Shown in pieces: positions 20,895-23,276 of a stretch of DNA of 64,000 bases. Every line of letters starts with the position of its first letter. Position 1 is the first letter of the stretch. The notes under the pieces were generated by a model. It was given only the letters and a program-made list of their open reading frames with translations. It ran no database searches and had not been told where the DNA came from. The position numbers and the translations under genes are program-made. Origin of the DNA: Alcanivoracaceae bacterium (lineage in GTDB: Bacteria > Pseudomonadota > Gammaproteobacteria > Pseudomonadales > Alcanivoracaceae); contig JARGPU010000003.1 in assembly GCA_029210325.1 (NCBI GenBank), positions 1-64,000 of the forward strand. Direction: 5' to 3'.

Positions 20895-23276
20895 ATGGAA
20901 AACCATTTTGAAGTCGTGATTGTTGGTTCTGGGCCGGCAGGTTTGAGTGCTGCTGGCCGAGCCGCAGAGCTGGATTTATCCCATGTGTTGCTGGAAAGCA
21001 CTTCCCATCTGGCTAACACCATTCAGCGTTATCAGAAGGGCAAGCACGTTATGGCGGAACCTGGCTTTCTGCCATTGCGTAGTAGCCTGCCATTCGATGC
21101 TGGCTCCCGTGAGGATATTCTGGCTGCCTGGCAGCAAAACGCGGGAACCCTGTCCATCAATGTGGACTGGCAGGCGGATGTGGTCGCCATTAGCGGGCAG
21201 CGTGGTGATTTCACTTTGCAAACCCGCGCTGGTAAAACCATACGAGCCGCTAACGTAGTGCTAGCCATTGGCTTGCAGGGCAACCCACGTAAGCTCGGCG
21301 TTCCGGGTGAGGATCAGCCATTTGTCCAGTATCAGCTGGATGATCCAGATGAATATCAGAATGAATCTATCATGGTGGTCGGTGCTGGTGACTCTGCCAT
21401 TGAGAATGCGCTGGCCTTGTCACGGAATAATCAGATTTCCCTGATTAACCGTCGAGATGAATTTGCCCGCGCCAAAGAGGGCAACCTGAAATTGCTTGAG
21501 GATGCCATTGAGCGCGGCCGTATCAGGGTGTTCTTCAATAGTAGTTTACGGCAGATCGAAACGTTGACCGGTGGCGACCATCTGGCTCAGGTGACATTGA
21601 CCACCGGCGAAGGTGAAGTACAGGTGCCGGTGGATCGAATCATTGCCAGGCTCGGTGCTATTCCACCACGGGACTTTGTCGAGTCCTGTGGCATTAAATT
21701 CCCCAATGATGCGATTAATGCAGTGCCCGAACTGACTCACCAATATGAGTCAAATGTGCCCGGTTTGTATGTTATCGGTGCCTTGGCGGGATATCCGCTA
21801 ATCAAGCAGGCCATGAATCAGGGCTATGAGGTGATCGAGCATATTCTCGGTCACGATATCAAGCCGGTGGATAATGATCTTCTGGCGGAAAAATTTTCTG
21901 GCTTGCCGTTTAACCTTGATGTCGAGCAGACCCTTGAGCTCATTCAGAATAATGTGTTGTGTTTTGGTCCGGTCAATAGCCTGCGTTTTCGTGAGCTGAT
22001 TTTGGAAAGTGAGATGCACACGCCGGCAGAAGGCGAGGTGATCTTCTCCCGTAACGACTACACCAACTCATTCTATTCGGTAGTTGAAGGGTCGGTAGAA
22101 GTTGTTATTGATGAAACTACCGGCAAGCGGGTGCGTATCGGGGAGGGGCACTTCTTCGGTGAGATGGGGTTGATTTCAGGTCGCCGCCGTAATGCAACTG
22201 TCTATGCAGGGCGTCACTGTGTACTGGTGGAAACTCCACGGCGTAACATGCTGCGATTACTCGCATCAGCAGATGAAGTGCGCCGGCGTATTGATCAGGT
22301 ATTTATCCTGCGGGCTATCCACTCCCAGTTTGCTCCCAACTCCAGTCTTGAGGACTTGTCTGATCTGGTGAACTCGGCAGAGTTGCGTCAGTACGCTCCC
22401 GGCGAGGTGCTGTTTGCAGAGGGAGAGAGCGGTGATGAGCTGCATCTGGTGCGGCGTGGCTCACTAACGGTGTCCCGCTATCTGCATGGCCGCGAAGTGG
22501 TGCTGTCCTATGTGCCGGCAGGCAAGTATGTGGGCGAAATGGGTCTGCTCGGTAATACCCGGCGTACTGCCTCGGTGCGAGCCGTGGTGCCGACTGAAAC
22601 AGTAGTGATGAAGAGCGGGCCATTTCTTGACCTGCTGGATAGAGATCCGCAGCTGAAAGAGCAGGTACAGCTACAGCTGCAGGCGCGTCTGCGCGCCAAT
22701 GCTTCCATGGAGGCCTCTGAGGAAGGTGGTGAGCTACTCTCGTTCCTGATGCGTCAAGGCTTGGGTGAAGCTACGGATGTGTTGTTGATTGACGAATCCC
22801 TGTGTGTACGTTGTGATAACTGCGAAACAGCCTGTGCTTCAACTCACGGTGGCACCTCGCGCCTGAACCGGGAAGCAGGGCCAAGTTATGCGTCTATTCA
22901 TGTGCCCACATCCTGTCGCCACTGTGAACATCCACATTGTATGAAGGACTGTCCGCCTGATGCGATCAGTCGTAATGCCAGCGGCGAAGTGGTCATTGCT
23001 GATAATTGTATCGGTTGTGGTAACTGTGAAAGCAATTGTCCTTACGGGGTTATCCAGATGGCTCAGGTGGGCGGTTCTCAGCCTGGCCTGTGGAGCCGTG
23101 TTCTGTTCGGTGCCGAGCATAAAAAAGTCAAGGACAAGGATGCGCCCAAGCGGGCAGTGAAGTGCGATATGTGTACCAGCCTGAAGGGTGGACCTGCCTG
23201 TGTTCGAGCCTGTCCCACAGGCGCTGCAGTGCGCATCAGTCCGGAACAGTTTATTGAGTTGGTGCAGGAGAACTGA
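20895..23276 (+). CDS. FAD-dependent pyridine nucleotide oxidoreductase with two cyclic-nucleotide-binding domains and C-terminal four-[4Fe-4S] ferredoxin module
   Basis: VVIVGSGPAGLSAAGRA (FAD), MVVGAGDSAIENAL (second nucleotide site); two cNMP domains (GEGHFFGEMGLISGRRRNATVYA and GKYVGEMGLLGNTRRTASVRA); four cysteine clusters (CVRCDNCETAC, CRHCEHPHCMKDCP, CIGCGNCESNCP, CDMC...CVRACP). Start set at MENHFEVV. Confidence 0.9.
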   Translation: MENHFEVVIVGSGPAGLSAAGRAAELDLSHVLLESTSHLANTIQRYQKGKHVMAEPGFLPLRSSLPFDAGSREDILAAWQQNAGTLSINVDWQADVVAISGQRGDFTLQTRAGKTIRAANVVLAIGLQGNPRKLGVPGEDQPFVQYQLDDPDEYQNESIMVVGAGDSAIENALALSRNNQISLINRRDEFARAKEGNLKLLEDAIERGRIRVFFNSSLRQIETLTGGDHLAQVTLTTGEGEVQVPVDRIIARLGAIPPRDFVESCGIKFPNDAINAVPELTHQYESNVPGLYVIGALAGYPLIKQAMNQGYEVIEHILGHDIKPVDNDLLAEKFSGLPFNLDVEQTLELIQNNVLCFGPVNSLRFRELILESEMHTPAEGEVIFSRNDYTNSFYSVVEGSVEVVIDETTGKRVRIGEGHFFGEMGLISGRRRNATVYAGRHCVLVETPRRNMLRLLASADEVRRRIDQVFILRAIHSQFAPNSSLEDLSDLVNSAELRQYAPGEVLFAEGESGDELHLVRRGSLTVSRYLHGREVVLSYVPAGKYVGEMGLLGNTRRTASVRAVVPTETVVMKSGPFLDLLDRDPQLKEQVQLQLQARLRANASMEASEEGGELLSFLMRQGLGEATDVLLIDESLCVRCDNCETACASTHGGTSRLNREAGPSYASIHVPTSCRHCEHPHCMKDCPPDAISRNASGEVVIADNCIGCGNCESNCPYGVIQMAQVGGSQPGLWSRVLFGAEHKKVKDKDAPKRAVKCDMCTSLKGGPACVRACPTGAAVRISPEQFIELVQEN

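What the first reader, a model, noticed from the sequence alone, without database searches (positions are those of the whole stretch)
20895..23276. Oxidoreductase combining FAD/NAD(P) module, two cNMP domains and four [4Fe-4S] clusters in one chain
The sequence shows a thioredoxin-reductase-like two-nucleotide-site flavoprotein, two tandem CAP_ED-type domains with GEMGL cores, and an HybA/DmsB-like 16-cysteine ferredoxin tail. A cyclic nucleotide could therefore directly gate NAD(P)H-to-FeS electron flow, which would be an unusual post-translational role for cNMP.
Basis: partly seen in the sequence, partly recalled or inferred. Interest (0 to 1): 0.82.

Follow-up and report, generated by a model that had tools for sequence, protein, structure and literature searches.

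The report
Predicted cAMP-gated electron-export module
A bacterial enzyme that can take electrons from NAD(P)H carries two apparently intact cyclic-AMP sensors and is encoded next to a chain of haem proteins that could pass those electrons across the cell envelope, so cAMP may directly switch electron export on or off rather than acting through gene expression.

Summary
The 793-aa protein at 20895-23276 has a TrxR/FNR-like FAD/NAD(P) module, two cNMP-binding (CNB) domains and a 16-Cys polyferredoxin tail. The fusion itself is not new: Kannan et al. 2007 list "Bact_Pyrredox" (pyr_redox + tandem CNB) among CNB families, with no function given. What I found no report of is the context. The gene opens a conserved seven-gene operon: a membrane protein with two invariant His pairs (predicted di-haem b), an FHA-TM-decahaem cytochrome, an HbpS-like lipoprotein, a probable barrel, an LVIVD multihaem cytochrome and a c554-like cytochrome. 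In relatives the cluster also gains a class III adenylyl cyclase (within 25 kb in 15 of 33 loci; 1.85 expected) and, in all nine loci of one alphaproteobacterial family, a CpdA/SpdA-like phosphodiesterase directly after the decahaem gene. Best reading: a cAMP-regulated NAD(P)H-to-haem conduit across the envelope. Binding, gating, direction and terminal acceptor are untested. The host has three adenylyl cyclases, none near the operon.

The parts
20895..23276 (+). Gene A: FAD/NAD(P) + CNB1 + CNB2 + 4x[4Fe-4S] protein, 793 aa
20907..21854 (+). A, FAD/NAD(P)H module (residues 5-320), FNR/TrxR/YpdA fold without redox-active Cys
   Evidence: Pfam; Foldseek of the model to YpdA/Bdr and FNR-type structures, E 6.5e-26; GxGxxA at 163-168 and R186/R192 conserved
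21978..22274 (+). A, CNB1 (residues 362-460)
22152..22208 (+). A, phosphate-binding cassette 1 FFGEMGLISGRRRNATVYA (420-438); G422, E423, R432 in 232/232
22350..22700 (+). A, CNB2 (residues 486-602)
22527..22583 (+). A, phosphate-binding cassette 2 YVGEMGLLGNTRRTASVRA (545-563); G547, E548 in 232/232, R557 in 228/232
22782..23249 (+). A, polyferredoxin tail with four 4-Cys motifs (residues 630-785)
   Evidence: PDB relatives HycB3/HycB4 of HDCR
23279..24169 (+). Gene B: membrane protein, 296 aa, predicted 5 TM with a helical insertion; predicted di-haem b (H82/H96 and H274/H288)
   Evidence: His invariance in 103 homologues; AlphaFold2 pLDDT 85
24174..25838 (+). Gene C: FHA domain + one TM + ten CXXCH haem motifs
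   Evidence: Pfam; ten CXXCH in 86/89 homologues and a TM in 86/89
25835..27781 (+). Gene D: HbpS-like protein with a lipoprotein-type signal (LLGSC)
   Evidence: Pfam PF03928; signal read from sequence
27778..29511 (+). Gene E: signal peptide, no Pfam match, probable outer-membrane barrel (inferred)
   Evidence: relatives in 71 of 109 fetched loci
29518..33282 (+). Gene F: multihaem cytochrome (ten CXXCH) with LVIVD repeats
33279..34535 (+). Gene G: cytochrome c554-like multihaem protein (four CXXCH)

Best explanation
Gene A encodes a cAMP-regulated NAD(P)H dehydrogenase that feeds a trans-envelope electron conduit. Inferred path: NAD(P)H reduces the FAD; electrons pass through four [4Fe-4S] clusters in the tail, into the two b haems of membrane protein B (inner pair H82/H274, outer pair H96/H288), then to the ten haems of periplasmic C, and on through F and G with barrel E towards the cell surface or a terminal acceptor. 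The tandem CNB domains between the flavin module and the polyferredoxin bind cAMP and change the domain arrangement, which allows or blocks flavin-to-cluster transfer or docking on B. In many relatives an adenylyl cyclase, usually with a CHASE2 sensor domain, is encoded in or near the cluster, and in one alphaproteobacterial family a phosphodiesterase follows C, so signal writer, reader and eraser lie together. Shown by sequence: domains, invariant residues, operon conservation, cyclase and PDE association. Inferred: haem b in B, cAMP binding, gating, outward direction, arrival at the cell surface.
For: CNB sites: G422/E423/R432 in 232/232, G547/E548 in 232/232, R557 in 228/232; cassette 1 has mean majority frequency 0.90 against 0.67 for the whole CNB1. 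Fe-S: all 16 Cys. Operon: genes abut or overlap within 6 bp; B present in 86 and C in 88 of 96 loci with at least 3 kb downstream. B: H82, H96, H106 in 103/103 and H274, H288 in 99/99, on predicted membrane helices. C: ten CXXCH in 86/89. cAMP: class III cyclase within 25 kb of A in 15 of 33 loci against 1.85 expected from cyclase density, P 1.5e-11, and within 5 kb in 4 against 0.45. It occurs in several arrangements: cyclase-TPR-FecR-A on one strand, between A and B, cyclase-G-D-E-F, cyclase-GDH-A. Most carry the Lys and Thr of class IIIb adenylyl cyclases. Informal control: 2 of the 155 or so GGDEF matches listed lie within 25 kb, about 2.3 expected (counted by eye). A CpdA/SpdA-like PDE directly follows C in 9 of 9 loci of family f227 and in two Sphingobium records, and lies in the cluster of G633. 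The host has three class III cyclases with the Lys/Thr signature.
Against: No experiment. In this genome no cyclase lies near the operon; its three cyclases are on other contigs, and no PDE was found in the window. CNB1 lacks the PKA-type beta2-beta3 Gly that co-varies with the phosphate Arg (T390 in 203/232) and has N at 433 where most have S or T. B has no significant Pfam match, and Foldseek against solved structures gives nothing better than E 0.5. The FHA domain of C keeps Gly-Arg but mostly lacks the phosphate-binding Ser. The A model is weak in the Fe-S tail, pLDDT about 40-60. A few relatives have A without neighbouring B and C (L030, L092, L126). The cyclase statistic does not correct for relatedness. 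The alphaproteobacterial PDEs match SpdA (a 2',3'-cNMP enzyme) better than CpdA, both below cut-off.
Confidence: 0.6

Rival explanations
1. cAMP binds, but controls where or whether A docks on B (assembly), not turnover of the flavin-FeS chain itself.
For: B has a long helical insertion, predicted cytoplasmic, that could be a docking site; CNB domains in PKA act through partner docking (established knowledge). Same residue and neighbourhood evidence as the main reading.
Against: The CNB pair lies between the flavin module and the Fe-S tail, a natural place for internal gating; nothing here separates the two.
Confidence: 0.2
2. The conduit runs inward: electrons from an outer or periplasmic donor reduce NAD(P)+ through A.
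For: Polyferredoxin and flavin chains are reversible; betaproteobacterial and Thiotrichales members belong to groups that include lithotrophs (own knowledge).
Against: Most hosts are from mainly heterotrophic lineages (Lysobacterales, Sphingobium, Alcanivorax), and reducing NAD(P)+ from usual outer donors is uphill. Direction was not tested.
Confidence: 0.15
3. The CNB domains are structural or sense something other than cAMP, as in FNR/CooA-type members of the fold.
For: CNB1 deviates at the beta2-beta3 loop; CNB folds have changed ligand repeatedly (PMC2246266).
Against: The families listed there with a changed ligand have lost the canonical PBC; here both Glu/Arg pairs are kept in 228 of 232, and cyclase and PDE genes are associated.
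Confidence: 0.12
4. Ordinary thioredoxin-type or bacillithiol disulfide reductase with extra domains.
For: Sequence and fold similarity to TrxR and YpdA.
Against: No CxxC and no YpdA Cys; NCBIfam scores far below cut-off (140 against 340 bits and 82 against 343); operon of cytochromes.
Confidence: 0.03

Closest known systems
Bact_Pyrredox CNB family (Kannan et al. 2007, PMC2246266, family 13)
   Same: N-terminal pyridine nucleotide-disulphide oxidoreductase plus tandem CNB; PBC consensus GEMGLISGRRRGATVRA, nearly the cassette seen here
   Different: The passages read mention no Fe-S tail, operon, haem partners, cyclase or PDE association, or function
Thiol-free FNR/TrxR-type flavoproteins (YpdA/Bdr fold, TrxR-like ferredoxin-NADP reductases)
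   Same: Two-nucleotide-site fold of the first 320 residues
   Different: No catalytic Cys; fused to CNB and polyferredoxin
HybA/HycB/DmsB-type polyferredoxin subunits
   Same: 16-Cys, four [4Fe-4S] pattern; electron wires next to membrane subunits
   Different: Here fused to the flavin module instead of being a separate subunit
Porin-cytochrome and Mtr-type extracellular electron conduits
   Same: Inner-membrane haem entry, periplasmic multihaem, probable barrel, outer multihaem proteins
   Different: Apparent direct NAD(P)H entry, no CymA/NapC-type quinol oxidase identified in the operon, CNB and FHA domains at the entry; no homology to MtrABC tested
CRP/PKA/PKG and CNB-gated channels
   Same: cAMP-sensing CNB with canonical PBC
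   Different: Output is a redox chain, not DNA binding, a kinase or a channel

Membership tests
CNB (cNMP-binding) domain | Pfam cNMP_binding above cut-off, two copies | tested here: met
   128.7 bits against 27.5, two stretches
CNB with canonical PBC | G-E ... R of the phosphate-binding cassette in both domains | tested here: met
   228 of 232 sequences keep both pairs, the query included
CNB with canonical PBC | beta2-beta3 Gly-Asp coupled to the PBC Arg | tested here: inconclusive
   CNB2 has G513/D514 (G or A in most relatives); CNB1 has T390/N391
CNB with canonical PBC | cAMP binding | not testable with these tools
   needs ITC or nanoDSF
Bact_Pyrredox family (Kannan 2007) | pyr_redox + tandem CNB with GEMGLISGRRR-type cassette | tested here: met
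Thioredoxin reductase / YpdA | redox-active CxxC or FAD-motif Cys | tested here: not met
   the only Cys in the module is C265, not part of a CxxC; GSGPAG in the FAD motif
HybA/DmsB-type polyferredoxin | four 4-Cys motifs, 16 Cys | tested here: met
   at least 231/232 for each Cys
CRP/FNR transcription factors | C-terminal HTH | tested here: not met
   no HTH family among Pfam matches
Transmembrane di-haem cytochrome b (B) | two His pairs about 14 residues apart on two TM helices | tested here: met
Transmembrane di-haem cytochrome b (B) | match to a known cytochrome b family or fold | tested here: not met
   Pfam b561 E 0.21; Foldseek best E 0.5
Porin-cytochrome conduit | barrel holding a multihaem cytochrome in the outer membrane | not tested
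   E inferred as a barrel from sequence only

The most novel reading that the evidence does not exclude
cAMP acts as a direct, post-translational valve on electron export: a local sensor-cyclase and phosphodiesterase set the cAMP level seen by the NAD(P)H-oxidising entry enzyme of a quinone-independent, trans-envelope haem conduit in Pseudomonadota.
Probability: 0.4. Interest if true: 0.9.

Novelty: new variant of a known kind. Interest (0 to 1): 0.74.

Why it matters
Bacterial cAMP is known mainly as a ligand of transcription factors. A second messenger that directly switches a redox enzyme feeding a haem conduit would be a new output for CNB domains, a new way to regulate envelope electron transfer, and would give a function to a CNB family listed in 2007. 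The prediction is sharp and cheap to test, with cultured hosts available (for example Sphingobium herbicidovorans MH, locus tags B6S01_RS18455 to RS18410).

Tried and rejected
CRP-site search upstream of the operon: a 2-mismatch site at 20688, but 22 matches in the window against 26 expected, so no evidence. Foldseek of B: no significant match. Literature searches for this operon, its parts or CNB-redox fusions gave no functional report; one found Kannan 2007, and one search listed no follow-up. Thioredoxin or bacillithiol reductase identity rejected for lack of Cys. GGDEF as a control for signalling genes near A: no excess (list truncated, counted by eye). The longer start at 20781 rejected because most homologues start at or near 20895. 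Canonical phospho-Thr binding by the FHA domain of C judged doubtful because the Ser is mostly lost.

Full report
Observation. The gene at 20895-23276 (+) encodes 793 residues (ATG 20895). Pfam finds Pyr_redox_2/3 (6-310), two cNMP_binding domains and Fer4-type matches in the tail. PDB sequence relatives of the three parts are TrxR/FNR/YpdA, PKA/PKG/CRP, and HycB3/HycB4-type polyferredoxins. An AlphaFold2 model (pLDDT 72.5) matches YpdA/Bdr and FNR-type structures over the first part. The model is poor in the Fe-S tail.

Residues. I aligned 232 sequences (the query, database hits and genome loci) at 44-100% identity to the query. CNB1 keeps G422, E423 and R432 in all 232. CNB2 keeps G547 and E548 in all, and R557 in 228. 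Cassette 1 is far more conserved than the rest of its domain, 0.90 against 0.67. Position 433 is S (156), T (35) or N (24, including this protein); position 558 is S (139) or T (61, including this protein). CNB1 lacks the beta2-beta3 Gly that Kannan et al. couple to the phosphate Arg, so the two sites may not be equivalent. All 16 Fe-S cysteines are kept. The flavin module has GxGxxA but no CxxC and no YpdA-type Cys (that these Cys define those enzymes is established knowledge), so disulfide chemistry is unlikely. The other one, an architecture already characterised, is met only in part: the pyr_redox plus tandem CNB family was catalogued in 2007 without function (PMC2246266).

Neighbourhood. 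Downstream lie six genes that abut or overlap within 6 bp. B is a predicted five-TM protein with H82/H96 and H274/H288 invariant. Taking the positive RKR loop as cytoplasmic, I place H82/H274 near the cytoplasmic side and H96/H288 near the outside, the layout of a two-haem transmembrane wire (inference). C is FHA-TM-ten haems. D is HbpS-like, E a probable barrel, F a ten-haem LVIVD protein and G c554-like. Of 96 loci with at least 3 kb downstream of A, 86 hold B and 88 hold C. The set recurs in Gamma-, Beta- and Alphaproteobacteria. A was found in 13 of 388 genomes drawn from the class and 17 of 399 drawn from the phylum.

Ligand. The unexpected result is the company A keeps. In 33 A loci of 31 genomes, a class III cyclase lies within 25 kb in 15, against 1.85 expected from each genome's cyclase number and size. 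Four of those genomes have a single cyclase, and it is 14-22 kb from A (G517, G603, G718, G733). Several different arrangements occur, which argues against one inherited accident, though the P value (1.5e-11) does not correct for relatedness and genome sizes were rounded. The near-A cyclases examined are mostly CHASE2-cyclase proteins, and most carry the Lys and Thr of class IIIb adenylyl cyclases (that these residues mark adenylyl cyclases is established knowledge). As a rough control, 2 of the 155 or so listed GGDEF matches fell within 25 kb, about 2.3 expected (counted by eye from a truncated list). In all nine loci of alphaproteobacterial family f227, and in Sphingobium records, a metallophosphoesterase related to Rv0805 and CpdA/SpdA with the DxH...GNHD...GHxH motifs directly follows C. 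SpdA acts on 2',3'-cNMPs, so the substrate here is open. In this genome three class III cyclases exist, one of them CHASE2-type, none near the operon.

Mechanism. NAD(P)H to FAD to four Fe-S clusters to two b haems to ten c haems to outer cytochromes is the simplest path through the parts. The CNB pair between flavin and clusters is placed to gate it. Shown: parts, residues, gene order, cyclase and PDE association. Inferred: haem in B, binding, gating, direction, surface exposure, terminal acceptor.

Novelty. The fusion is an entry in a 2007 table. I found no report of its function, its Fe-S tail in an operon context, the conduit operon, or the cyclase/PDE association in the library searched, which lacks most subscription journals. 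I therefore call it a new variant of a known kind.

Noticed in passing
13878-19348 (-): Three genes on the opposite strand read by eye as a dnaE2-imuB-imuA damage-mutagenesis cassette (not profile-tested).
   Followed up: no
58255-60210 (+): Protein with a strong linalool dehydratase/isomerase match (PF18566, 6e-68), notable in a probable Alcanivorax relative.
   Followed up: no
37738-38592 (-) and 55038-55964 (+): Two paralogous 'predicted metal-dependent hydrolase' genes (PF10118).
   Followed up: no
L104, L105, L118, L120, L030: A glutamate dehydrogenase gene is adjacent or close to A in 14 of 109 loci, a possible NAD(P)H link.
   Followed up: partly
L145 11966-12694 (-): In the window's own genome a FecR-like gene lies next to the CHASE2 adenylyl cyclase, as in the cyclase-TPR-FecR-A clusters of relatives (read by eye).
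   Followed up: no
L030, L092, L126: A without neighbouring B and C; A may use other partners there.
   Followed up: no
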